Below are positions 7,846 to 40,690 of a stretch of DNA of 47,516 bases, in pieces. The translations under genes were made by a program, and so were the position numbers. The stretch spans positions 1 through 47,516 of the forward strand of contig RZZM01000004.1 of assembly GCA_009929845.1 (NCBI GenBank), in the 5' to 3' direction. Below the pieces are notes generated by a model. That model did not search any database and was not told where the DNA came from. It saw only the letters and a program-made list of their open reading frames with translations. Numbering within the stretch: position 1 is the stretch's first letter; the number at the start of each line of letters is the position of its first letter. The stretch is from Spartobacteria bacterium (GTDB lineage: Bacteria; Verrucomicrobiota; Kiritimatiellia; RZYC01).

Positions 7846-9390
7846 ATGACAAGCAATCAACAACGTGCGGCGTTGCAGCGCCAGATCTGGCAGATTGCCA
7901 ATGATGTCCGGGGCGCCGTGGATGGGTGGGATTTTAAGCAGTATGTGCTCGGCACCCTGTTTTATCGCTTCATCAGTGAAAACTTTGCCAGCTACATTGA
8001 AGCCGATGACGACAGTATTCACTATGCGGAATTGGACGATGACGTCATCACCCCGGAAATCAAAGACGATGCCGTTAAAACCAAGGGTTACTTCATTTAT
8101 CCCAGCCAACTGTTCGTCAATATCGCTAAAGGGGCCAACACCAACGAAAGCCTGAATACCGATTTGGCTAAGATTTTTTCAGAGATCGAGGCTTCCGCCA
8201 ACGGCTACCCTTCGGAAGTGGATATCAAAGGCCTTTTTGCTGATTTTGATACCACCAGTAATCGTCTGGGCAACACGGTTAAGGACAAAAACACCCGTTT
8301 GGCCGCCGTGCTCAAAGGGGTGTCTGGACTGGATTTCGGTGATTTTCACGGCAGTCAGATCGACCTGTTCGGCGATGCCTACGAGTTTCTAATCTCCAAC
8401 TATGCCGCCAATGCCGGTAAATCCGGTGGAGAGTTCTTCACCCCGCAGCATGTGTCCAGGCTGATTGCGCAACTCGCCATGCACAAGCAGACCAGCGTCA
8501 ACAAAATCTATGACCCCGCCTGCGGGTCCGGTTCCCTGCTGCTGCAGGCCAAAAAGCACTTCGACGCCCATATCATTGAAGACGGTTTTTTCGGTCAGGA
8601 GATCAACCACACCACCTACAACCTGGCGCGTATGAACATGTTTCTGCACAACATCAACTACGACAAATTCAATATGCAGCTGGGAAATACCCTGACCGAA
8701 CCCCATTTTGGCGATGAAAAACCCTTTGACGCCATCGTCTCCAATCCACCGTATTCGATTAACTGGATCGGCAGCGATGATCCGACCCTGATCAACGACG
8801 ATCGTTTTGCCCCGGCCGGTGTGCTCGCGCCAAAATCCAAAGCGGATTTTGCCTTTGTACTCCATGCGCTAAGCTATCTTTCCAGCAAAGGCCGTGCGGC
8901 CATCGTCTGTTTTCCCGGTATTTTTTACCGTGGCGGCGCCGAAAAGAAGATCCGTCAGTATCTGGTGGATAACAACTATGTGGAAACCGTGATTTCCCTC
9001 GCGCCAAACCTGTTCTTCGGCACCACCATCGCCGTCAATATTCTGGTGCTCTCCAAGCATAAGACAGACACGAAAACCCAGTTCATTGATGCCAGTGGCC
9101 TGTTCAAAAAAGAGACCAATAACAACGTGCTGCTGGATACGCACATTGAAGAGATCATGCGGGCATTTGACAGCAAAGAGAAGGTGGATCACTTTGCCCG
9201 CTCGGTGGATTACGATGAAATAGCGAAAGAAAAGGACTACAACCTCTCCGTCAGCAGCTATGTCGAAGCCAAGGACACCCGAGAAATCATCGATATCATT
9301 AAACTGAATGCCGAAATAAAAACCACAGTAGCTAAGATAGACCAATTACGCAGTGATATTGATTCCATTGTCGCGGAGATAGACGCATGA
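7846..9390 (+). CDS. hsdM: Type I restriction-modification DNA methyltransferase subunit
   Basis: The 514-residue modification subunit of a type I system methylates adenine (N6) in the DNA recognition sequence within the HsdM2S complex. The N-terminal helical domain is followed by a Rossmann methyltransferase domain. That domain has [10 protein letters not shown] before motif I (DPACGSG at residues 223-229) and the catalytic NPPY at residues 300-303. A helical C-terminus contacts HsdS. Length is normal. It is the first gene of a seven-gene overlapping operon; its stop overlaps the KilA-N gene by 4 bp. Coding composition is less GC-rich than the genes after 18.5 kb, consistent with acquisition by transfer. 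Confidence 0.95.
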
Positions 9391-18391: not shown

Positions 18392-18436
18392 TCAGGAATG
18401 AATCACCCCCATCATCCCGGTCATCAATACCTTCAT
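18392..18436 (-). pseudogene. 5' remnant of the THEP1-like NTPase gene
   Basis: Reading leftward from 18436, the frame gives MKVLMTGMMGV, identical to the first eleven residues of the NTPase at 202-708, then diverges to IHS and a stop. The gene is cut inside its P-loop. It lies divergent from the ModE-like gene, which shows what the arrangement was before the island split it. Confidence 0.85.
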
Positions 18437-18517
18437 GTCTGCCCCGTTGCCGGTTGCCTGTTTATCCAGTCTATCACATTTCGCGCGGAATATATTGACT
18501 GCCGATATAAACAAGCA
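18405..18517. repeat. Right copy of duplicated NTPase/regulator intergenic segment
   Basis: This is the direct-repeat partner of 677-785 and carries the intact promoter and palindrome. It has 8 bp (around ccggttgc) that are absent from the left copy. Similarity ends at 18404 on the NTPase side and after aacaagca on the regulator side. Confidence 0.85.
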
Positions 18518-18527
18518 TATATATCGG
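18495..18527 (+). promoter_or_regulatory. Promoter with overlapping palindromic operator for the ModE-like gene
   Basis: TTGACT (18495-18500) and TATATA (18518-18523) are 17 bp apart, an excellent sigma70 promoter. A perfect 8-bp inverted repeat, CCGATATA (18502-18509) and TATATCGG (18520-18527), spans the spacer and -10 box. It resembles the known ModE box style (CG-TATA arms around a short spacer). A protein bound there would block RNA polymerase, so autoregulation by the adjacent ModE-like protein is inferred. The ATG at 18533 lies nine bases past the -10, so the transcript would be leaderless or nearly so. Confidence 0.65.
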
Positions 18528-18532
18528 CGCGT

Positions 18533-18877
18533 ATGAACGTGAAATTGAAAATTACACTGACCAACGACCAGGAAGAGGAGTTCATGGGCATCGGACTGCT
18601 CTGGCTGCTGCGGGAGATTGACGCCTGCCATTCGATTCACAGCGCCGCGGAACGGGTGGGCCTCTCCTATGTCAAGGCGCTGAAGATTCTCAATCGCCTT
18701 GAAGCCAACCTTCCCAACAAGGTTATTTTACGCACGCGCGGCGGACACCAGCGGGGCGGGGCGGAATTGACGCCCTACGGACGCCGTTTTTTAAAACACT
18801 ATGACCGCCTCCAAAAGCGCATTAAGGGCTTTGCCGAAAAACAATTCACCACATTCCAGGAGGAGATCATACCTTGA
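18533..18877 (+). CDS. ModE-like winged-helix regulator (DNA-binding domain only)
   Basis: This 114-residue protein matches the N-terminal DNA-binding domain of ModE. It has a first strand, a helix pair SIHSAAERVGLSYVKALKIL, a 'NRLEANLPNKVI' linker, the RGGHQRGGAELTPYGRRFL wing, and a dimerisation helix. Full ModE carries C-terminal TOBE domains that bind molybdate; these are absent here, so the effector, if any, is unknown. The start at 18533 is chosen because the first strand (LKITL) aligns with the ModE start and because no better site exists upstream. The gene overlaps the TonB receptor start by 4 bp and probably controls it. Confidence 0.85.
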   Translation: MNVKLKITLTNDQEEEFMGIGLLWLLREIDACHSIHSAAERVGLSYVKALKILNRLEANLPNKVILRTRGGHQRGGAELTPYGRRFLKHYDRLQKRIKGFAEKQFTTFQEEIIP

Positions 18878-20886
18878 CGAAGCTTTTTTTTATTTTCCGT
18901 GGACGCCCTTATCTTTGCGCGGGGGTGATGTTTCTGGGCCTTCTCGCGGCACAGCCTGTCCGGGCGCAAGTATTTGAACTGGGCGAAATTGTCGTCACGG
19001 AGGCCCAACCCGCCCAGGCGCCGGTGACAACACAGTCCATCGTCACGGAAGAAGAGATTCGCGCCATGGGCGCCCAGACCGTGGACCAGGCCGTGTTCTT
19101 TGTGCCCGGTGTTACTATCCAAAGTCCGGGCAAAAATACCCGCCAGATCAATATCCGCGGGTTTTCCGGAAGCCAGGTCAAGGTGCTCATCGACGGGATA
19201 CCTGCTAATGAAACCTTTTTTCGCATCATTGACCTGTCGCAGTTGCCCGTGGACAGTGTCGCGAAAATCAAGGTGATCAGGGGATTGCCCTCCGTGCTGT
19301 ACGGCGCGAACAGCATGGGCGGCGTGGTCAATATCATTACGCGCAAGGGCAGTGAAATTCCTTCCGCTTCGGGTACGGCGCTGTTCTCGGGCGACAACAC
19401 CCTTCACGCCGCCCTGCTGGGCGGCGGACAGCTCAATAATCTTAACTGTTTTATGTCCTATGCCTACCAGACCAGCGACGGCTATCCCTGCTCCGGCGAC
19501 TTTGATCCGGACAACACCGAAACCGGCAGGGATTCCCCCTATCACGAAGACGGCGGGCAACGCGAAAACAGCGATTACCTCAAACGTTCCCTTACCGCAA
19601 AACTGGGGTACGATACAGAAGAAAGCCGGACCTACCTGAGCTTTGTCCAGCACGACAACCGCATGGGGGTCCCCATCGAATACAACCGCTACTGGCGTTA
19701 TCCGGAATGGAAACAATGGCATCTGAGTTTGACCTCCGAAAAGGAGTGGGGCCCGTGGACCCTTTCCGGGCAGGCCTATTATTTCGAGCATGACGACACC
19801 CTCCAGGATAACACCGTCAAGACCGCCGCGCTGGGCGGGAAAAGCTGGTTTGATGAAAGTGTGTACGATGATTACAGCGTGGGGTGCATGGCACGCGCCG
19901 ACTGGCAATTCTCTGAAATCGGCACGTTGCGCTCGCTGGCTCGATACCAATTCGAACAAAACCGTCAACGGGAATTGAATACACGCAATGGCGCGGGAGG
20001 GATTGCGACGCCCGGATGGTCCGATGACGCCGTATACGAAACCGCCACCTGGGATTTTGCGTTGGAAAACGAATGGCGCATTGATGATTTGCTCTGCCTG
20101 CTGGGCGTCAGCTACGACCTGTATCGCCCCCTGCGCTCAACGGACGTGGCCGCCGGCGAGGATATTGACGCCCTCAACCCGCAATGTGGCGCCCATTACC
20201 TGTTCACACCGGAGTTCGAGGTCTATGGAAGTTTCGGACGCAAGACGCGCTTTCCGCATATGAAGGAGCTCTACAGCAGTCACGCGGGCGGCAATCCGGA
20301 ACTGGACCCGGAGTATACCGACAGCCTGGACCTTGGCACGCATATCACCCTGCCCGGCCCCCTGCCCGGCCGCCTTCAAGCCGCCGCCTTTCATAATGAC
20401 ATCCGGGACTTGATTCTTTCCGTCAATACTGCCGACGGCGAATCCCGCTATGAAAACATTGGTAGGGCCATGACGCGCGGACTGGAAATCGGCGGCGAAG
20501 CCGACCCGCTGGACGACCTGCGGCTCAGCCTGAATTACACCTGGCTGGACGCGCGTGACGAGGACATGGACCGGCAGCTTCCGCACCTGCCCCGACACCG
20601 CGTGACTGGCGCGGCGCGCTGGACCATCGTGCCCGGATCCACCCTCTTCACGCAACTCGCCTACGCCCGGGGCGCGCAGGAATACCTCTTCAACCGCGCC
20701 ACAAAAACCGAATATACCCGGCATTTGCCGGATTACTTCCTCTGGGACATCGGCATCGAACAGCAACTCGGTTCGCATGTGACGCTGGTCGCGCGCGCCG
20801 AGAATCTCCTGGACGAAAACTATGACATCGGCGACGGGCCGATGCCGGGCCGCCGCCTCTGGGCCGGATGCCGCTTCAATTGGTGA
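18874..20886 (+). CDS. TonB-dependent outer-membrane receptor
   Basis: The 670-residue receptor starts with TTG at 18874, backed by an AGGAGG eight bases upstream. It has a signal peptide to about residue 31 (PVRAQ), a TonB-box-like FELGEIVVTEAQ, a plug domain (about 48-158: VDQAVFFVPGVTI, INIRGFSGSQVKVLIDGIPA, GANSMGGVVNIITRKG) and a C-terminal 22-strand-type barrel ending NLLDENYDIGDGPMPG and terminal Trp. Such receptors import scarce ligands (metal chelates, vitamins, oxyanion complexes) using TonB energy. The ModE-like gene upstream hints at a molybdenum- or tungsten-related ligand, but the barrel itself does not tell. Confidence 0.92.
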   Translation: MTKLFFIFRGRPYLCAGVMFLGLLAAQPVRAQVFELGEIVVTEAQPAQAPVTTQSIVTEEEIRAMGAQTVDQAVFFVPGVTIQSPGKNTRQINIRGFSGSQVKVLIDGIPANETFFRIIDLSQLPVDSVAKIKVIRGLPSVLYGANSMGGVVNIITRKGSEIPSASGTALFSGDNTLHAALLGGGQLNNLNCFMSYAYQTSDGYPCSGDFDPDNTETGRDSPYHEDGGQRENSDYLKRSLTAKLGYDTEESRTYLSFVQHDNRMGVPIEYNRYWRYPEWKQWHLSLTSEKEWGPWTLSGQAYYFEHDDTLQDNTVKTAALGGKSWFDESVYDDYSVGCMARADWQFSEIGTLRSLARYQFEQNRQRELNTRNGAGGIATPGWSDDAVYETATWDFALENEWRIDDLLCLLGVSYDLYRPLRSTDVAAGEDIDALNPQCGAHYLFTPEFEVYGSFGRKTRFPHMKELYSSHAGGNPELDPEYTDSLDLGTHITLPGPLPGRLQAAAFHNDIRDLILSVNTADGESRYENIGRAMTRGLEIGGEADPLDDLRLSLNYTWLDARDEDMDRQLPHLPRHRVTGAARWTIVPGSTLFTQLAYARGAQEYLFNRATKTEYTRHLPDYFLWDIGIEQQLGSHVTLVARAENLLDENYDIGDGPMPGRRLWAGCRFNW

Positions 20887-20892
20887 AACACT

Positions 20893-21690
20893 ATGGAATC
20901 GATTGATTACAATGCCATCTTTTGCCGGATGCGGGCGCGCTGCGCACAGCAGCACAAGACCCCGGAGGAATGGGACACCCGCGCCGAGCAGATGAACGCC
21001 AAAGAACCCACCGCGCATGCCTACACCCGCGACCTGCTCGCGGCCATCAACACAAACGACTGCCGTAGCGTTTTTGATGTCTGTTGCGGGCCGGGCCATC
21101 TGCTGACCGCCCTGGCCGGACACATGGAATATGCATACGGACTCGATTTTTCGTCGGTCATGCTGCAAACCGCCCACGCGAACGCCCGGCGGGCCGGGGT
21201 GGAAAACTACCGGCTTTTTCTGCGCGCATGGGAAGACGCCTGGGACGACCTGCCCCAGGCGGACATTGTGACCGCGTCGCGCTGTCTCGATGTGGATGAT
21301 ATGGCCGTTGCCCTGCGCAAGCTCGATGCGCTGGCCCGGCGACGCGTCTATATCTCCTATCGCGTCGGGGCACACCACCTGAGCCCGGATATCATCGCGG
21401 CCGTGCAACGCGACATCCCGCCCCGTCCCGACTACCTTCTCCTGGTCAACATCCTCTACTACCAGATGCATCGACAACCCGCGCTCGCCTATATCACCAC
21501 CCCGGAAAAGACCTCCACCTACCCGTCCTTCGCCTCTCTGCGCAAACGTGTTGAATGGTCGCTGGGGCCGCTTGCCGATGACGAAAGCCGGCGGCTGGAA
21601 GCCTTTTACCTTCGCCTGCCGGAAGACGACCCCGGCGCGCGCATACATACACATCCAATGACATGGGCGCTCATCTCATGGGAAAAATAA
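20893..21690 (+). CDS. Class I SAM-dependent methyltransferase
   Basis: The product is a 265-residue Rossmann methyltransferase. Motif I is VFDVCCGPGHLLTALAG (around residues 58-74), motif II acidic residue AYGLDFSSVML, and motif IV ADIVTASRCLDVDD, where ASRCLDV occupies the catalytic loop. The substrate is unknown. It begins six bases after the TonB receptor stop and its end overlaps the next gene, so it belongs to the same transport operon. It may modify a small ligand or a chelator. The 'WDTRAEQMNA' N-terminus also occurs in methyltransferases of small-molecule pathways, a weak hint. Confidence 0.8.
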   Translation: MESIDYNAIFCRMRARCAQQHKTPEEWDTRAEQMNAKEPTAHAYTRDLLAAINTNDCRSVFDVCCGPGHLLTALAGHMEYAYGLDFSSVMLQTAHANARRAGVENYRLFLRAWEDAWDDLPQADIVTASRCLDVDDMAVALRKLDALARRRVYISYRVGAHHLSPDIIAAVQRDIPPRPDYLLLVNILYYQMHRQPALAYITTPEKTSTYPSFASLRKRVEWSLGPLADDESRRLEAFYLRLPEDDPGARIHTHPMTWALISWEK

Positions 21691-22727
21691 CCTCACGACA
21701 AACGGAGATTCCGTACTCGGCTGAGCGCATGCTCCAACGCCTGACCGCGTTATGGGGGCTCACCGAAGCGGGGCTTGGCGGCGTGATCCATTCATTGAGA
21801 ATTCCCTTCACCGGCATAGTGGTGGGCTCGACCGCCATTATTCTGATTACGCTGATTGCGCATGTTGGCCGCAAGCGACCACGGGCGATCCTCCACGCCA
21901 TGGCCGTGGTCCTGATCATCAAGGCCGGGGTCAGCCCGCACACCCCAATCCCCGCTTACATCGCTGTTATATTCCAGGGCTGCATGGCCGCCGTTCTCTT
22001 CCGTTATCTGCCTGGCATACGCTGGCCCGCCATGCTCCTGGGCCTCCTCGGCCTTATCGAAGGCGTCAGTCAGAAATTTATCACCATGACCCTGGTGTAC
22101 GGAAAATCTGTCTGGGAAGCCATCGACCTGATCGGGGCCAAACTCAGCGACCAGTGGGGCTTGGATATCGGTCTGGATCATGCCAGCGCCTGGCTCATCG
22201 GGATTTTCATTGTTTACTATGGCATCGGCGGCGTCATCACCGGCTGGTTGGCCGGCAGCATTCCGTTAAAGGTGGATGAACTCCTCCGTTCACATCACCC
22301 CATCAGCCCTGCCATCCCCGTAAACGCCGCCCCGGACCTGCCTCCGAAGACCCGCCGCCGCTGGCCGTTACGCCGCCTGCTGCCCGCCCTGCTGATCCTG
22401 TTCATGATCCTGGGGGTGTACGGATGGCTGTACGCCGACACCCCCTTGCATTCGCGCGCCTTCTATATCCTCGCCCGGACCCTCCTCGTCCTCGGGGGGT
22501 GGTTTTTCCTGCTCGGACCCTGTGTCCGCAAATGGATTCAGCGCCTTCAAAAGCGCAAATCCATGCGCTACAGCGAGGCCGTTGCGCAGGCCATGACCCT
22601 GATGCCCCAGCTCAGGAAAATGGCCGGTCCCGCCTGGGCCGAAACCGCCGCCGCCCCCCGGGCCGTCCGTTGGTACCGCTTCCTCATCCGCTGGGTTGTC
22701 TACAGCATCGCCCTGGACGCTGAATGA
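21663..22727 (+). CDS. Polytopic inner-membrane protein of the TonB-receptor cluster
   Basis: This 354-residue protein has about six hydrophobic segments in its first 240 residues. They include LTALWGLTEAGLGGVIHSL, GIVVGSTAIILITLIAH, MAAVLFRYLPGI, MLLGLLGLIEG and SAWLIGIFIVYYGIGGV. A basic cytoplasmic loop follows (PPKTRRRWPLRR), then two more segments and an Arg-rich end. The first part has the compact, Gly-rich look of vitamin or metal substrate-capture membrane proteins (ECF S-component or CbiM style), but I cannot assign it. No ATPase partner is adjacent apart from the displaced THEP1-like NTPase. ATG 21678 is an alternative start; neither has a ribosome-binding site, consistent with coupling to the overlapping methyltransferase gene. 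Confidence 0.7.
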   Translation: MGAHLMGKITSRQTEIPYSAERMLQRLTALWGLTEAGLGGVIHSLRIPFTGIVVGSTAIILITLIAHVGRKRPRAILHAMAVVLIIKAGVSPHTPIPAYIAVIFQGCMAAVLFRYLPGIRWPAMLLGLLGLIEGVSQKFITMTLVYGKSVWEAIDLIGAKLSDQWGLDIGLDHASAWLIGIFIVYYGIGGVITGWLAGSIPLKVDELLRSHHPISPAIPVNAAPDLPPKTRRRWPLRRLLPALLILFMILGVYGWLYADTPLHSRAFYILARTLLVLGGWFFLLGPCVRKWIQRLQKRKSMRYSEAVAQAMTLMPQLRKMAGPAWAETAAAPRAVRWYRFLIRWVVYSIALDAE

Positions 22728-22737
22728 TAGAAGCCGG

Positions 22738-23556
22738 CTACGGTACTTCGACCTGGATACGGTAAAATATCTGGCGCTCGGGGTCACCACTGGCATCCTG
22801 CATTTCATCCACTCCGCCGCTGCCCGGGCGGGGGGGCACGCCGGGCACATTGCTCCAGCATGTGGGCAGATTCAGTTGGTCCGTGAATTGGAACGAATAT
22901 ACGCGCCCGGTCGAGCCGGGCTGGAACTGTACCACGGCCGGCGGGCCGTAATCCACCGCCAGCACCCGGAATAGATCATTTGTGTCGTCGGGATCGGTGT
23001 CGGCGATATTTTCGTGCCGCAGCGTGGTGCCCTTGTCGGCCACAACACGCGCATCCACATCGCTCCAGTCCTCGCCGGGGTCCGGCGCGATGCCATGGGC
23101 GGCGTACCAGTCGAGATCGGCGCCACCCTGGCTCAGGAAAGACGCGATCACCGTCAGGTCGGCCATGACCTCGGCGTCCGTCCGCGGATTGGCGGCCATC
23201 CCATCGCTCCAGCCGTGAAAGACGGCGCTGGCGTTCTCGCCCACAGCTTCCACCTGGGCGCCGCTCTGACCCTCGGCGACCTGCTGTGTGGCGACGCCGA
23301 CGATGCGGCCACCGGTCCCGGCGCGGTAGATCAGCGTGTAGGTGGTTGCCCCGCCTGTGGTCACCTCGCGTTGCAGCAGGTTGCCGTTGGCATCGTAGGC
23401 GTAGGCGATGCTGGCGCCGCCGCTGTAGGCGGCGTTGGTCAGGCGTCCGACGGCGTCGTAGGTATAGGTGACGGTTTCCACGGCGAAGGCCGACGTATCG
23501 ACGAGGCTCAAGCTCAGGGCCGCCATCAGTAGATTTATTTTCATCTTCATATTCAT
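22738..23556 (-). CDS. Secreted YD-repeat / bacterial-repeat protein
   Basis: The 272-residue protein has a signal peptide (to about SAFA). Two YD (Rhs-type) repeats follow (VTYTYDAVGRLTNAAYSGG and AYAYDANGNLLQRE). A domain like the beta-rich 'bacterial repeat' (GTGGRIVGVATQQVAEGQ... FHGWSDG) comes next, and a tail ends with a FYRIQVEVP motif similar in style to the FWRVQ ending of the 1254 gene. It lies 14 bp after the giant Rhs-like gene, and its AAGGAG lies on that gene's stop, so the two are cotranscribed. A partner or decoy of the large YD protein is possible. Its end faces the convergent membrane-protein gene only 10 bp away. Confidence 0.75.
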   Translation of the reverse strand: MNMKMKINLLMAALSLSLVDTSAFAVETVTYTYDAVGRLTNAAYSGGASIAYAYDANGNLLQREVTTGGATTYTLIYRAGTGGRIVGVATQQVAEGQSGAQVEAVGENASAVFHGWSDGMAANPRTDAEVMADLTVIASFLSQGGADLDWYAAHGIAPDPGEDWSDVDARVVADKGTTLRHENIADTDPDDTNDLFRVLAVDYGPPAVVQFQPGSTGRVYSFQFTDQLNLPTCWSNVPGVPPRPGSGGVDEMQDASGDPERQIFYRIQVEVP

Positions 23557-23570
23557 GGCCGTTTCGCTCC

Positions 23571-26500
23571 TTACTTGGATTTATTCATGAGTTGGTCCAT
23601 CCAGATTTCCCCGGCATTCACCGGGGTGTTTTCCATGGAATGCTTCAATACGTTGGGATCGATTTCCCAGGGGTCGTACCCGAATTCCGCCTTACGAAGC
23701 TGGCTTTCCATCCACAGTTCGCCGGCATTGACGGGCGTGTTCCGGGCGGCCTCCAACATAGCCTCGGGATCGGGCATAATCTGGTTCAGCGCGGCCGCGG
23801 CCTTTTCGTCGAAGCCGGCGGGACTGAAGGCGGGAACATCGACGAAGGTGTCTTCGATGGTGGCCGAGTTGCCCTCGGTCTTGGGCGGAGGCACCGCCAC
23901 GGGGTCTGGCAACTCGTTCTCGTTCAGGAGCGGCAGGGCCGGGGCGGCCGGCTTCTCGGCCTCGACCCGCTTCGTCGTCGCCTGCTGGATTTCGTCCAGT
24001 TCGTCGTAGACGGCCTGGTATTCCTCCGGTATCAGAGCCCGCAGTTCGTCCCGGATCTTCAGGCCCTTCACCCACCCCCGGCGGTGCGAACCGCCCTCGT
24101 TCTTCACCTTTTCGGCAATCACCGGGGCGGCGGCCTTCAGGAAATCATCCATGAGCTGCGCTTCGGCGATGGCGGTTTCGGCCTGCTCCATCAGTTTCTC
24201 CTCCTCCAGCTCTTCGATTTCGCCTTCGAGCCGGTCGATCTGCCGGCGGTAGTCGTTGCGGATGCTTTGCAGATTCATAATCCGTTCAACCCGGGCATCC
24301 TCGAGTTTCTTGTCCATGCCGTCCGTCACGTAGGGAATGGAATACTTATTCAGCAGCTTGAGCTGGCGCAGCTTGTCCTCTTCCTCCTGGATTTCCTTGT
24401 CGCGGGCGCGCAGTTCGGTGCGGGCCCGTCCGATCAGGTCCTGGCGGGATCCGATCTTCCGGTCGATTTCCCTGGTTTTGGCGGTGACGATCGGAGTTTG
24501 CTTGGGGTGCAGGGCGTCCTTGCGGGCCTGCCATTTGCGTTTTTCGCGCTCGAATTCGCGCACCCGGTTCATGACAAATGCCCGCTGGCGGCGGGCCTCG
24601 TCGTAGTTGTGCCAGGCATTGTCCGGCCAGTAATTTTCATCATCCACGACGGCCAGAATCAAGCCGGCGGTCCAGTAGAAGGGATTATTGCCGTAGGTGC
24701 GGGCATCGCTGATCCGGTTGCTGATGTTCTTCATCTTCTCGTCCAACGCCTTGATTTTGGCTTCCTCGCCGGCAATCAGGGCATCGTAATTGGCGATGAA
24801 ACGGTCGATTTCGGCCTCGTCGGTCCAGAGCGCATCGCCGGTGCCGCCGTCGCGCGCATGCTTGCCCTTGACGAAAAGGTCGTCCTTGCCGTCGTCGTCA
24901 CGTTTCCCGAGCGGAGCGGTACCGACAAAGGCATCCATGCGCAGGAATCCGTGTTCACCGCCGGAGGTGAAGGGCTGGTTGAGGCCGCCGGATTCGGCGA
25001 CGATTTGCCCGAACGGATCATAGGCGTAGGCCTGGACGACCGTCCCGCTTCCGTCGCTGATGGCCAGCATCGAGCCGTTGGCGTCGGGGTGATAGAAGTA
25101 CACGGCATTGCCGTTGTTAAGGTCCACGAAGTAGAGCAATCGGCCCGCGGGGCTCCAGACATAGAGGCGGTTGTTTTCGCGCACGGGCACGTCGCCCAAT
25201 CCGAGGTTGTAGTACAGCTTGGTCGGCGTGGCGCTGCCCTCCAGTTCCAGCAGGTGATCCAGGCCGGAGTAGCTCAGGGTCATGCCGTCCATGGCGGCGG
25301 GCCGGTCGTCGAGCCACGCGATGGTGCGTCCGGGGGTGGCGGTGGCCTGGCCGCGGTCGTTGTAGGCATAGCCCGCGCTGGATATCTGTCCCGCGGCGTC
25401 GTAGGTCCACGCGTTGGTTTCCGCCGCGAGATTCGGCCCGGCCTCCAGGGGCCATGTGCCGCCGACGGAGGTGATGCGGCCGTTGGCGTCATACGCGTAT
25501 TCCAGGTCCAGCACCGTGCCGTCCGCGATGCGGGTGACGGAGCCGTCGGCCCCGCGGGTAAACGCCGCGTTCTGGCCGTTGGACCGCCGAATGCCCGTCA
25601 GCCGCCCTTGCCCGTCGTACTCGTAGGTGATCTGCGTGCCCGTCAGCGAATCGAACTGGTTGGTGATGCGCGCTGTGGCGGGCTCGACCTGGTAGGTGAC
25701 GGTCATGATGCCGCCGTAGTCCAGTTCCGCGAGGCGACCGGCCGCGTCATAGGCCGTGCCGTTGGTCACGCCGTGGCAGACGGTTTCCACCACCCGGCCC
25801 ATCGCGTCATGCGCCAGTGCCAGGCCGTCCGCCGCCACGAGGGTCCCCAACTCGTCGTAGACCCAGGTCAGGGTTTCCTCCGCCCCGCCGCCGGCGGCGG
25901 CGGCATAGACCTCCGCCGTCACCGCGCCGTCGAGGTTGTATTGATAGGCGCGGGAGGCGCCGTCGGAGAATTCGATGCCCGCCAGCCAGCCGTTGGTGTT
26001 GTAGATGAAGCGGTTCGTGCGGTGCAGGGGATCCACCGTGGCCTCCAGGCGGCCCATGGGGGAGCGTTCGACCGTCCACGTTCCGCCGTTGGCGTCGGTC
26101 CAGCCGGCCAGGCCGCCCAGTTCATCCACGTCATAGGTTTCGACGATGCCCCCGGGCAGCTCGACGCGCACCAGGGCGCCGTCGGCATCATAGTCCAACT
26201 GGATCAACGGGCCGGCCGGCGGTTCGATTTCCACGGCGCGGCCCACCGCGTCGCGTTCATAGCGGGTGGCGTTTCCGGCCGCATCCACCCGCGAGGTCAC
26301 CGCGCCGCGCGCGTCACGCCAGCAGCGTTCCGTGCCCAGGAGGGAGTTGGACAGGGCGGACAGGCGTCCGGCGGCGTCATACTCGAAGCGGTTGGTGATG
26401 CCGCCGAGCGACACCACCACCGGCCGGTTCAGATCGTCATAGGTGATTTGGCGTCCGGTTCCGTCGGGCCCGGCGGTTTGGATGAGCCGTCCGGCGGCGT

Positions 26501-29315
26501 CGTAGGAGAACGCCACGCGGGCCTCGGCGCGCGCCACGGCGGCGGTGACGCGTCCGCGCGCATCGTATTCCACCGAATTGGTGACGCCGTCAGGATCCAC
26601 CAGAGCCGCGGTCCGCCCGGATGCGTCGTAGGCGCGCGTCCAGACGGCTCCTTCGGGGGTGGTGACGGCGGCCAGCCAGCCGTTGACGGGTTCGTAGGTG
26701 TATGCGGTGGTCGCGCCGTCGGGCCGGACCCGTTCCACCAGGCGCCGCAGGCTGTCGTAGGTGTTGCTGAACACCCCGGCGTCCGAGGTGGCGAAGGTTT
26801 CCGGCAGGCCGTCCGCCGTGTAAGTGCGGGTGGCCACGCCGCCCGCCGGATTGGTGACCGCCAGGGGCTGGCCGAGGGCGTTGCGGGCAATGCACCAGGT
26901 GGACGTGCCCGGGGTGGTGATCTCCGCGAGGCCGCCGCGCGCATCGTAGCCGTAGGCCCACGATGCGCCGTCCTCCAGGGTGAGGATTTCCAGTCGGCCC
27001 AACAGATCGTACGAATAGCGCCGCGCGCCGCCCGCCGGATTCGTCACGGCGGCCAGGAGGCCTTCCGGCGTATAGCCATAGCGCCATGTGCGGCCGCCCC
27101 GGTCGGTATAGGCCGAAAGCCGACCATTGTCGTAGGCGCGCGCATCCGCCCCGGCGCCCGGCAGCTCCACGGACACCAGCCGGCCGTCGGCATACGACCA
27201 CGCCGTGGTGCGCGCCAGCGAATCGACGGTTTGCGTCACCACGCCGTTCGGGTCGCGCCATGCCTGGACCGCGAACCCCGTCGAGTCCACCCGGCCCGTC
27301 ACCAGTCCCTGCGCGTTGCGCTGAATCTCGACGCTGCCGTAACCGGCGCGCGCAACCGTCGCGGGTCGGCCGCTCGCATCGTAGGTGGCCATGCGCCGCA
27401 CCCGTCCGCGCTGTTCATTCGTGACGCTACCGAGGGCGTCGCGATGGAATTCGTTCGTGATTCCGCCCGTTGCGGATCGAGCGATCCATCCCATGGGGTC
27501 GTATTCGAATCTCGTCGCCTCGGCAAACGACGGCGCATTCGTCGCGATGCGGTCCATCAGATCATACGTATAGACCTTCTCCGCCCCGGTCGGCCCAACC
27601 GCCCGCGTCAGGTTGCCGTTGGCATCGTATTCATAGGTCCAGGCGTCGTCCGCGTCGTTGCTGACGGACAGCAGGCGGCCGGCCGGGTCGTAGTCATAGG
27701 CCTGCCATGTGCCGTCGGGATAGGTGATCGAGGCCAGCCGTCCGAGATGGTCATACGTGAACAGGTTAGTGCCGCCGCCGACCGTGGTAGCGCTTTCCGG
27801 CAAGGCGTTGGTCGTGTAGGTCCATCGGGATATCCCGCCCGCCGGACTGACCCGCCGCAACAGATTGCCCCGCGCGTCATATTCGAAAGTCCAGAGCCCG
27901 CCCGCTCGATCCACGCGCCCCGTCACGTTGCCGCGACCGTCGCGTTCAAACATCTCCGATGTCCCGTCCGGATAGCGCCGCGCCGCCAGGTCCCGGAACA
28001 CGAACTCCACCGCCTCCAGCGTGATGGGATTCACTACCGTCTGCGTCGTGACGCCATATTCGAATGTCATCGCGTCGCCTGACGGATTCGTGATCGCCGT
28101 CGTGAGCCGCGTCTCCGGGTCGAACCCGAACGAGGTCACGCCGCCCGAGCGGTCCGTTACCGATTCCGCCTGCAGATTGTCGTTGCGCACGAAAACCGTC
28201 TGCCCGCCGGCGGAATCCGTGACATCGGACGGGGGAAGATGGCGGGCGGCGCTGGCGTAGCGATTGGTCGTGCTGTCCGGCCACGTCACCGCCAGTTCGT
28301 GCGTATTCGTGTCGTAGAGATAATCCACCCGGTTGGAATAGGCGTCCTCCTGGAAGGCCACGGCGGCCATTTCGTAGGGATCCTCGGCGTAGAACATCAG
28401 CGCGGTCCAGGCGTTTTGCCAGGGCGTGTTGCCGACCGGCCGCGTATGCGCCGCAATCAGGTCGATGTCCCGCCCGCCATACTGGTCCATCGTCCATGTG
28501 TAGTCGAAACGGTTAGTTCGACCAACGGCATCCATGACAAATCGCAGACAGTCGTTCGTGGCGTTGTCCGGCGCGTCCTCCTCGTAGACGAGTTGCGCCG
28601 AGCGACCGGTGTGGTCGGTCACGTTCGTGATGCCCTGCGGCCCGTATTCGATGTCCAGCCGTCGCCCGTCGCCATCCTCGAGCCCCACCGGCCGCCATCC
28701 GTTGCCGGCCGGATCATATTCATACCCCACATGGTTCCCGTTACGGTCGGTGACGGCTGCCACGCGCCAGTTATTGTTCGTAAACCGATGGAAGATGGTC
28801 ACCTTCCCCGGCCCCGGATTCAGCAGATACAGCCAGTTCGTGTCCCCCTTGAGCTGGTAGTCTTTCGGCGATCCCGAACTCGCGACCCCGAATGTGTTCG
28901 TATCGACCAGCGAAAAGGAATCGTCCGGGTTCTGTCTGAACGCCACCGCCTCACCGTCGGCGAGTTCGAATTGGTAATAGTTCGTGCCGGACATTTTGTT
29001 CACGCTCAACATGCGGCGGAATGACCAGCCCCACTTGCCCCATGACGGCAGGTCGCCCACAGGCATCGCGCTGGCGCGGTTCGATCGGTAATCAAGGTGG
29101 AATCCCAGTCCCATGGGCCCGCCCAGTTCCAGCAGCGGCAGGCTGAAATAGTATCCGCCCGCGTTGGCGTCCACCGGGTCCGTCTTCTCCGCCGCCCAGA
29201 TTCGGCTCCACGCCAGGTTCTGCGGCGGCCACAGCGACGACGCCTGGCCGCGCCCCGCCCCCAATAACATGCCTCCCGCCACCGCTGCGCCTATCACCCA
29301 TATTCTCTTTATCAT
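23571..29315 (-). CDS. Giant secreted Rhs/YD-repeat protein with coiled-coil tail
   Basis: From ATG 29315 (perfect AAGGAGGT upstream) the protein has 1914 residues. It has a signal peptide ending GRGQA. An Rhs N-terminal module follows (GGYYFSLPLLELGGPMGLGF), then roughly 1300 residues of YD repeats ('Y.YD..GR/N'), which build a hollow beta-cocoon in related proteins. The core stops at YDPFGQIVAES without the usual 'RYYDP..GRF' end. No toxin domain follows; instead residues ~1500-1780 form a highly charged coiled coil. The last ~60 residues carry NTPVNAGELWM and NTPVNAGEIWM. A surface, adhesive or cell-contact role is inferred. Codon use is strongly GC-biased, which opens a 1496-codon antisense frame. 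Confidence 0.88.
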   Translation of the reverse strand: MIKRIWVIGAAVAGGMLLGAGRGQASSLWPPQNLAWSRIWAAEKTDPVDANAGGYYFSLPLLELGGPMGLGFHLDYRSNRASAMPVGDLPSWGKWGWSFRRMLSVNKMSGTNYYQFELADGEAVAFRQNPDDSFSLVDTNTFGVASSGSPKDYQLKGDTNWLYLLNPGPGKVTIFHRFTNNNWRVAAVTDRNGNHVGYEYDPAGNGWRPVGLEDGDGRRLDIEYGPQGITNVTDHTGRSAQLVYEEDAPDNATNDCLRFVMDAVGRTNRFDYTWTMDQYGGRDIDLIAAHTRPVGNTPWQNAWTALMFYAEDPYEMAAVAFQEDAYSNRVDYLYDTNTHELAVTWPDSTTNRYASAARHLPPSDVTDSAGGQTVFVRNDNLQAESVTDRSGGVTSFGFDPETRLTTAITNPSGDAMTFEYGVTTQTVVNPITLEAVEFVFRDLAARRYPDGTSEMFERDGRGNVTGRVDRAGGLWTFEYDARGNLLRRVSPAGGISRWTYTTNALPESATTVGGGTNLFTYDHLGRLASITYPDGTWQAYDYDPAGRLLSVSNDADDAWTYEYDANGNLTRAVGPTGAEKVYTYDLMDRIATNAPSFAEATRFEYDPMGWIARSATGGITNEFHRDALGSVTNEQRGRVRRMATYDASGRPATVARAGYGSVEIQRNAQGLVTGRVDSTGFAVQAWRDPNGVVTQTVDSLARTTAWSYADGRLVSVELPGAGADARAYDNGRLSAYTDRGGRTWRYGYTPEGLLAAVTNPAGGARRYSYDLLGRLEILTLEDGASWAYGYDARGGLAEITTPGTSTWCIARNALGQPLAVTNPAGGVATRTYTADGLPETFATSDAGVFSNTYDSLRRLVERVRPDGATTAYTYEPVNGWLAAVTTPEGAVWTRAYDASGRTAALVDPDGVTNSVEYDARGRVTAAVARAEARVAFSYDAAGRLIQTAGPDGTGRQITYDDLNRPVVVSLGGITNRFEYDAAGRLSALSNSLLGTERCWRDARGAVTSRVDAAGNATRYERDAVGRAVEIEPPAGPLIQLDYDADGALVRVELPGGIVETYDVDELGGLAGWTDANGGTWTVERSPMGRLEATVDPLHRTNRFIYNTNGWLAGIEFSDGASRAYQYNLDGAVTAEVYAAAAGGGAEETLTWVYDELGTLVAADGLALAHDAMGRVVETVCHGVTNGTAYDAAGRLAELDYGGIMTVTYQVEPATARITNQFDSLTGTQITYEYDGQGRLTGIRRSNGQNAAFTRGADGSVTRIADGTVLDLEYAYDANGRITSVGGTWPLEAGPNLAAETNAWTYDAAGQISSAGYAYNDRGQATATPGRTIAWLDDRPAAMDGMTLSYSGLDHLLELEGSATPTKLYYNLGLGDVPVRENNRLYVWSPAGRLLYFVDLNNGNAVYFYHPDANGSMLAISDGSGTVVQAYAYDPFGQIVAESGGLNQPFTSGGEHGFLRMDAFVGTAPLGKRDDDGKDDLFVKGKHARDGGTGDALWTDEAEIDRFIANYDALIAGEEAKIKALDEKMKNISNRISDARTYGNNPFYWTAGLILAVVDDENYWPDNAWHNYDEARRQRAFVMNRVREFEREKRKWQARKDALHPKQTPIVTAKTREIDRKIGSRQDLIGRARTELRARDKEIQEEEDKLRQLKLLNKYSIPYVTDGMDKKLEDARVERIMNLQSIRNDYRRQIDRLEGEIEELEEEKLMEQAETAIAEAQLMDDFLKAAAPVIAEKVKNEGGSHRRGWVKGLKIRDELRALIPEEYQAVYDELDEIQQATTKRVEAEKPAAPALPLLNENELPDPVAVPPPKTEGNSATIEDTFVDVPAFSPAGFDEKAAAALNQIMPDPEAMLEAARNTPVNAGELWMESQLRKAEFGYDPWEIDPNVLKHSMENTPVNAGEIWMDQLMNKSK

Positions 29316-29587
29316 GGCTACCTCCTTGGGGGACACGCTTCTTCCGCGCCCGCCCGCTCTATTACCAGTTGACGACAGCTTAGAAAAAGGGGAAAGCCGC
29401 TGTCTATCCGTGAAAACCCGTATATCGGGTCATGAATCATGTGCCACGTTTTGGCACGGCCTGAAAGACCGGGACGTTGCCCGAGGCTACGGTGAGTCCG
29501 CCCCGTTGGGGCTGAGAACCGGAGAGACGATGGAGTTCCAGGTTCAGAAAGCCTTACCTCATGGAATGTAAAGTGACACAGGGATTC

Positions 29588-40585: not shown

Positions 40586-40690
40586 GATTTTTCCAATGAT
40601 TGGAAACTTTTTGGGCGATTTTTCCAATGATTGGAAACTTTTTGGGTGATTTTTCCAATGATTGGAAACTTTTTCCAACCATTGGAAAAC
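40586..40690. repeat. Palindromic tandem repeat array between convergent genes
   Basis: There are two full 31-bp units (40586-40616, 40617-40647) and a third partial unit (40648-40674), each with the palindromic core TTTCCAATGATTGGAAA. A variant palindrome, TTTTCCAACCATTGGAAAA, ends at about 40689. The array fills the gap between the TPR gene and fmt, which point towards each other, and stops within 10 bp of the fmt stop. It could form stacked hairpins and terminate both genes, or bind a dimeric protein. Confidence 0.9.

What the first reader, a model, noticed from the sequence alone, without database searches (positions are those of the whole stretch)
23571..29315. Rhs-like protein with a coiled-coil tail and a duplicated NTPVNAGE(L/I)WM motif
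Typical Rhs proteins end the core with a 'RYYDP..GRF' block and release a toxin. Here the block is missing and ~400 charged, coiled residues follow, closing with two copies of an unusual motif. A two-YD-repeat secreted protein is encoded immediately after. This may be a structural, adhesive or delivery protein, not a toxin.
Basis: partly seen in the sequence, partly recalled or inferred. Interest (0 to 1): 0.6.

Follow-up and report, generated by a model that had tools for sequence, protein, structure and literature searches.

The report
Uncleavable Rhs shell with exported partner
This gene encodes an exported bacterial 'Rhs' shell protein that has lost its self-cutting site and carries a coiled tail instead of a recognisable toxin, and it sits next to a small exported partner of a kind found beside Rhs genes in several bacterial phyla, so it is more likely a surface or structural protein than a toxin.

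Summary
P0001 (minus strand 29315..23571, 1914 aa) is an exported RHS/YD-repeat protein. NCBIfam TIGR03696 (the 'RYYDP..GRF' block) is undetectable in it at E<=1 but above cut-off in all nine relatives tested. A relic (FVGTAPLGKRDDDGKD) aligns with the block's end in G076, so an in-frame deletion probably removed about 40 residues. These include the Arg and first Asp of the known Rhs aspartyl protease, so the tail should not be released. The tail is about 240 predicted helical residues plus a disordered acidic end with two NTPVNAGE(L/I)WM copies. It matches no toxin family or solved fold. The motif occurs nowhere else in 193 genomes of the class.

The wider result concerns the neighbour. The small protein (22738-23556) belongs to a family of 'signal peptide + two YD repeats + variable extracellular module' proteins. 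They are encoded beside Rhs genes in several classes or phyla, usually directly 3'. In two loci, one in this genome, the order is Rhs-toxin-like CT / immunity-like ORF / small protein, so the small protein is not the immunity gene. I propose that it is an accessory subunit that docks to Rhs shells and anchors or displays them. I found no description of it. Docking is inferred, not shown.

The parts
23571..29315 (-). Rhs/YD-repeat protein P0001, 1914 aa, N-terminal Sec-type signal peptide (alternative GTG start at 29336)
   Evidence: hydrophobic N-terminus MIKRIWVIGAAVAGGMLLG
24996..28778 (-). YD-repeat shell region (about residues 180-1440), ending with YFYHPDANGS..AYAYDPFGQ
   Evidence: Pfam RHS_repeat, 11 stretches; homology to relatives' cores up to residue about 1460
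24882..24935 (-). Deletion junction: GFLRMD joined to relic AFVGTAPLGKRDDDGKDD; about 40 residues (LYQMRARYYDAxTGRFLSPDP..LNPYQ) missing
   Evidence: TIGR03696 absent here and present in 9 of 9 relatives; relic vs G076 score 46, shuffles 22.8 +/- 4.2, 0 of 500 reach it
24099..24818 (-). Coiled-coil/helical tail (residues 1500-1739), with hydrophobic break NNPFYWTAGLILAVV at about 24645-24689
   Evidence: AlphaFold2 helices, pLDDT to 95; 69% identical piece in G046, dN 0.17, dS 1.0
23574..24098 (-). Acidic, Pro-rich, largely disordered C-terminal end (residues 1740-1914)
   Evidence: (mostly pLDDT < 50), composition
23709..23741 (-). Motif copy 1, NTPVNAGELWM
23598..23630 (-). Motif copy 2, NTPVNAGEIWM
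22738..23556 (-). Small exported partner, 272 aa: signal peptide, two YD repeats, InlB-like module, C-terminal 'TDP..F...YRIQVEVP' domain
23359..23550 (-). Signal peptide + two-YD module shared across phyla
22741..23124 (-). C-terminal domain of the partner; in the class found at the extreme C-terminus of many long ORFs

Best explanation
An exported two-protein unit. The large protein folds as an Rhs/YD beta-shell but has lost, by in-frame deletion, the Rhs-associated core block with the catalytic Arg and first Asp of the self-cleaving aspartyl protease. Its C-terminal region is therefore not released and stays attached as a helical plus disordered tail with two short linear motifs. The small partner is a member of a conserved family of accessory proteins: its two YD hairpins probably dock in trans to an Rhs shell, and its C-terminal module, which varies between lineages, anchors or displays the complex at the cell surface. 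The unit most likely works as a surface-attached, adhesive or structural shell, derived from an Rhs toxin-type locus. Shown: anatomy, loss of the block, selection on the tail fragment, and the recurrent gene pairing. Inferred: export, lack of cleavage, docking, surface role.
For: Block missing in this protein only, with a relic of its end. In a bacterial teneurin-like protein the catalytic residues are R2103, D2116 and D2140 of the RHS motif (PMC13018210); by spacing, the first two lie in the deleted stretch. No toxin family or fold in the tail, nor a Pfam toxin in nine relatives' tails. Tail and partner are under purifying selection (dN/dS about 0.18-0.23). The partner is 73-77% identical between genomes whose Rhs N-termini are 35-45% identical and whose tails are unrelated, so it follows the core, not the tail. 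In the phylum search 10 of 12 short-ORF 'signal peptide + 2 YD' hits share a locus with an Rhs gene; 9 of 14 in the mixed-phylum set. In own-genome C262 and in G013 the order is Rhs + toxin-like CT / immunity-like ORF / small protein. Partner C-termini elsewhere are Ig, cadherin, Calx-beta, TIG or fn3 modules.
Against: Docking is not demonstrated: the partner's model is poor (mean pLDDT 42) and no complex could be modelled. Two relatives' tails (G076, G464b) that keep the cleavage block are also non-toxin-like, so loss of cleavage is not required for a non-toxin tail. A novel all-helical toxin would be missed by family and fold searches. Some two-YD proteins stand alone (L071, L075, L077, L079, G348, G013 second copy).
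Confidence: 0.5

Rival explanations
1. A polymorphic Rhs toxin with an unrecognised, helical (for example membrane-active) C-terminus; the helices with a hydrophobic break (NNPFYWTAGLILAVV) would insert into membranes, and the small protein would be immunity or chaperone.
For: The tail sits where Rhs toxins sit and is polymorphic between relatives. Same-genome Rhs loci look toxic. Membrane-damaging CTDs occur in bacterial teneurin-like proteins (PMC13018210).
Against: The small protein does not covary with the tail and carries a signal peptide and extracellular modules. In two loci an immunity-like gene is separate from it. Protease residues for release are deleted. No 19-residue window in the tail exceeds mean hydropathy 0.9. 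No toxin fold match at E<0.1.
Confidence: 0.2
2. A decaying Rhs gene: the deletion killed its function and the tail is drifting.
For: Deletion of a universally conserved block; in G046 the tail fragment is fused to the partner's C-terminal half, interrupted by a TAG, and looks like a remnant.
Against: 1914 uninterrupted codons; dN 0.17 vs dS 1.0 against the G046 fragment (89 codons); motif copies conserved as protein despite synonymous changes; intact partner.
Confidence: 0.15
3. Canonical Rhs locus in which the partner is only a recombination landmark: conserved sequences on both sides of the tail let tails be swapped, and the partner has no role with the shell.
For: Conserved core, variable tail, conserved 3' gene; tandem units in G464 C188 and the fused remnant in G046.
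Against: Partner families in other phyla share only the signal peptide and two-YD module, with unrelated C-termini, and lie upstream of Rhs in G215 (two loci) and Mesorhizobium; a landmark would not need conserved protein there.
Confidence: 0.15

Closest known systems
Rhs polymorphic toxins (RHS_repeat PF05593 / TIGR03696 core)
   Same: YD shell, polymorphic C-terminus, position in locus
   Different: TIGR03696 block deleted, no recognisable toxin, no immunity gene directly downstream, conserved two-YD partner instead
Bacterial teneurin-like proteins (PMC13018210)
   Same: Sec-exported YD shell, surface role proposed, variable C-terminus, adhesion modules
   Different: There the adhesion domains are fused in cis and the downstream gene is a tail-specific immunity gene; only weak TEN_YD-shell similarity here (24 bits, cut-off 50)
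ABC (Tc) toxin BC component
   Same: Two-protein Rhs shell with an aspartyl protease (established knowledge)
   Different: TcB and TcC each supply large parts of the cocoon; here the second protein has only two YD repeats and no toxin
Rhs orphan CT cassettes
   Same: Short exported ORFs downstream of an Rhs gene
   Different: Orphans carry the TIGR03696 block plus a toxin (as in own-genome C564); the two-YD partner has neither

Membership tests
RHS/YD-repeat proteins | Tandem YD repeats (PF05593/TIGR01643) | tested here: met
   E 4.8e-94 and 6.7e-69
Rhs polymorphic toxin | Rhs-associated core block TIGR03696 | tested here: not met
   No match at E<=1; nine relatives match above cut-off
Rhs polymorphic toxin | Self-cleaving aspartyl protease residues (Arg, Asp, Asp) | tested here: not met
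   Arg of RYYD and Asp of SPDP lie in the deleted stretch; only the last Asp (KRDDDG) has an aligned equivalent (assignment by spacing)
Rhs polymorphic toxin | Recognisable C-terminal toxin domain | tested here: not met
   No Pfam, NCBIfam, PDB-fold, phage or plasmid match; an unknown toxin cannot be excluded
Rhs polymorphic toxin | Downstream immunity gene that covaries with the tail | tested here: not met
   Next gene is the conserved two-YD protein, independent of tail type
Bacterial teneurin-like proteins | Teneurin YD-shell profile PF25023 above gathering score | tested here: not met
   24.1 bits against a cut-off of 50
T6SS Rhs effectors | PAAR or T6SS N-terminal domain, VgrG link | tested here: not met
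   Sec-type N-terminus, no PAAR hit, no T6SS gene among the neighbours examined
Two-YD partner family (proposed here) | Hydrophobic signal-like N-terminus followed by exactly two YD repeats, short exported ORF, Rhs gene in the same locus | tested here: met
   signal peptide judged by eye

The most novel reading that the evidence does not exclude
Rhs/YD shells in several bacterial phyla have a previously undescribed second subunit: a small exported protein whose two YD hairpins complete or dock to the shell in trans, and whose swappable extracellular module decides where the shell is anchored or what it binds. In some lineages, such as this one, the shell has been converted to a non-cleaving, non-toxin surface machine.
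Probability: 0.35. Interest if true: 0.75.

Novelty: new variant of a known kind. Interest (0 to 1): 0.52.

Why it matters
Rhs proteins are studied almost only as toxin capsules. A natural Rhs whose release protease has been excised while the reading frame stays open would be a direct test of what the shell does without a toxin, a step like the one proposed for animal teneurins. A recurrent small partner beside Rhs genes in unrelated bacteria would suggest that Sec-exported Rhs systems have a dedicated anchoring or display subunit, which bears on the open question of how Rhs proteins without a type VI system are held at the cell surface and delivered.

Tried and rejected
(1) A shared tail motif: NTPVNAGE looks like the P(Q/H)R(A/P)GD(I/V)IAE repeats in the G076 and G464b tails, but alignments do not beat shuffles (98 of 500 and 269 of 500), so I dropped it. 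(2) Homologous tails: only G046 has a real match. Weak hits to the G076 and G464b tails (3 and 0 of 300 shuffles) rest on charged, low-complexity sequence. (3) The genome-contig scan with the tail found nothing; phages and plasmids, nothing. (4) Structure of the partner: poor model, not used for a fold search. (5) Best PDB hits for the tail are F-BAR and VIPP1/PspA coiled coils with E>0.1: generic helices, not used. (6) A compensated frameshift as the cause of the missing block: the other frames printed over this stretch show no GRF or RYYD block (by eye). (7) An assembly error cannot be excluded without reads; an in-frame loss with a homologous relic makes it less likely. (8) The two-YD similarity test (adaptor-adaptor 89.5 vs adaptor-inner 43.6) is partly circular, because the adaptors were recruited by similarity.

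Full report
WHAT IS THERE. The ORF lies on the minus strand, 29315 to 23571, 1914 codons without a stop. Pfam finds 11 RHS_repeat stretches (4.8e-94) and only weak teneurin-shell similarity (24 bits, cut-off 50). The N-terminus is a Sec-type signal peptide by eye, with the most hydrophobic 19-residue window at residue 1. Immediately downstream (14 bp) is a 272-aa ORF, 22738-23556, with a signal-like N-terminus, two YD repeats, an InlB-like 'FHGWSDG..NPRTD' stretch and a C-terminal domain ending YRIQVEVP. The neighbours beyond are a convergent membrane-protein gene with a methyltransferase and TonB-receptor genes on one side, and GNAT-like and alpha/beta-hydrolase genes on the other. The window belongs to a 5.6-Mb MAG; a same-class relative (G464) is deposited as an 'Opitutia bacterium', so the phylum is probably Verrucomicrobiota (inference).

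THE MISSING BLOCK. TIGR03696 scores 44-64 bits (cut-off 32.5) in the last 400-550 residues of nine related Rhs proteins and is undetectable in the query at E<=1. Eleven TIGR03696 copies elsewhere in the same genome are above cut-off. Query and relatives align to about residue 1460; then the query jumps to AFVGTAPLGKRDDDGKD, which aligns without gaps with YVGNQPLGRIDVDGFD at the end of the block in G076 (score 46; shuffles 22.8 +/- 4.2; 0 of 500). The parsimonious reading is an in-frame deletion of about 40 residues. In a bacterial teneurin-like protein the protease uses R2103, D2116 and D2140 of this motif (PMC13018210). By spacing these are the R of RYYD, the D of SPDP and the D of (I/V)D(P/V)(S/D)G. 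The first two are gone here.

THE TAIL. AlphaFold2 without an alignment gives four long helices (residues about 1500-1740, pLDDT up to 95) and a disordered remainder. There is no significant PDB fold (best E 0.11, F-BAR coiled coils), no Pfam or NCBIfam family, and nothing in plasmids, phages or the named genome collection. Among 388 genomes of the phylum only G046 has a relative of the tail: 69% identity over 96 residues, dN 0.17 vs dS 1.0 over 89 codons. There it is fused, just after ILAVVD, to the C-terminal half of the small partner, interrupted by a TAG: a remnant showing that tail and partner travelled together. NTPVNAGE(L/I)WM occurs only in this gene among 193 genomes of the class. Its two copies keep 10 of 11 residues while 4 of those 10 identical residues use different codons, and the flanks are unrelated: a maintained short motif of unknown ligand.

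THE FAMILY. The closest Rhs relatives (G464 two loci, G274, G076, G301, own-genome C766) have 1418-1962 aa and tails that are mutually unrelated except G076/G464b and G274/G301/G215. None of the tails tested has a Pfam toxin. This is the usual Rhs pattern of conserved core plus swapped C-terminus. Every complete copy of the small protein in the class (seven copies in five of 346 genomes) lies next to an Rhs ORF: six directly 3', gaps of -58 to about 40 bp, and one at a contig edge with an Rhs 268 bp further on. It is 73-77% identical where the Rhs N-termini are 35-45% identical and the tails unrelated. A tail-specific immunity protein should behave the other way round.

BEYOND THE CLASS. A scan of named genomes recovered short exported ORFs starting with the same signal peptide + two-YD module directly after Rhs ORFs in Acidobacteria (L070), Lentisphaerae (L072), Puniceicoccaceae (L074), Verrucomicrobiia (L096, L097, L115) and Hydrogenedentota (L112), 436 bp after one in a Thermoplasmata-labelled MAG (L080), and just upstream of one in Mesorhizobium erdmanii (L078). 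A phylum-wide profile search gave 12 short-ORF hits, of which 10 share a locus with an Rhs gene. After the two YD repeats the C-termini differ: Ig/He_PIG, cadherin, Calx-beta, TIG, fn3, or Ig plus FGE-sulfatase, or in this class a domain that in nearly all other matches ends within seven residues of the stop codon of a long ORF. Outside the module these proteins are unrelated, so what is conserved is 'two YD repeats + exported + beside Rhs'. In own-genome C262 and in G013 the order is Rhs with TIGR03696 and a toxin-like C-terminus, then a 90-115 aa immunity-like ORF (by position only), then the two-YD protein. The partner is therefore distinct from immunity, and the query locus is the version without an immunity gene.

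MECHANISM. Rhs shells are built by side-by-side YD hairpins (established). A protein of two YD hairpins, secreted with a shell and carrying an adhesion-type or C-terminal sorting-like module, is best read as a subunit that adds to the shell edge in trans and fixes the shell outside the cell. With its cleavage block removed, the query shell should keep its tail. The coiled tail and repeated short motif then suit tethering or binding rather than intoxication. Steps shown: anatomy, deletion, selection on part of the tail, gene pairing. Steps inferred: export, lack of cleavage, docking, surface role.

LITERATURE. Five library searches and passages of two papers showed no description of the two-YD partner. 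The library holds open-licence papers only, so absence there is weak evidence.

Noticed in passing
window 40586-40688: Tandem palindrome TTTTCCAAnnnTTGGAAA (4 matches here, 0.01 expected). The same palindrome is spread through this class: 333 matches in this genome, 331 in G001, 1467 in G008, with 0 for the reversed control; it is absent from several other families. An abundant interspersed palindromic element or operator.
   Followed up: partly
L201 (G000:C564:2000-17500): A classical Rhs toxin array in the same genome: a 2681-aa Rhs followed by immunity-like ORFs and three short exported ORFs with TIGR03696 blocks and different C-termini (orphan CT cassettes), in all four cases without a two-YD partner.
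   Followed up: partly
L185 (G000:C262), 7884-9359 minus: Rhs core end with a toxin-like C-terminus (..TTVIGHLPDYPKVAKKMGANYLRPSANWNFQKQG..), a 115-aa immunity-like ORF and a 98-aa two-YD protein in a row.
   Followed up: partly
L015 / L062 (G046:C82:631-1467): Remnant in which the query-type tail is fused to the C-terminal half of the small partner and interrupted by a TAG, preceded by dispersed 'VIPSLSRDLS'-type repeats.
   Followed up: yes
window 22741-23124 and relatives: An uncharacterised C-terminal domain ('DxxDTDPxxxxSxF ... FYRIxVxxP') that ends within 0-7 residues of the stop codon in nearly all matching long ORFs across the class; a candidate surface-sorting domain without a Pfam model.
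   Followed up: partly
L055 (G464:C188), L057 (G076), L061 (G464:C264): Tails of relatives also hold two-copy internal duplications of about 20-55 residues (e.g. RAGDIIAEAFGREFQRLMERKMAEELLREKE twice in G076); no significant similarity to NTPVNAGE.
   Followed up: partly
L186, L074, L115 Rhs C-termini: Rhs tails in three other Verrucomicrobiota loci end alike ('GAF.HF.LY..YM.LAGIP.PNSPN...GF'), each followed by a two-YD protein.
   Followed up: no
window 18398-22727 plus: A ModE-like regulator, TonB-dependent receptor, methyltransferase and membrane protein on the plus strand, convergent with the Rhs pair; probably a metal or oxyanion uptake operon.
   Followed up: no
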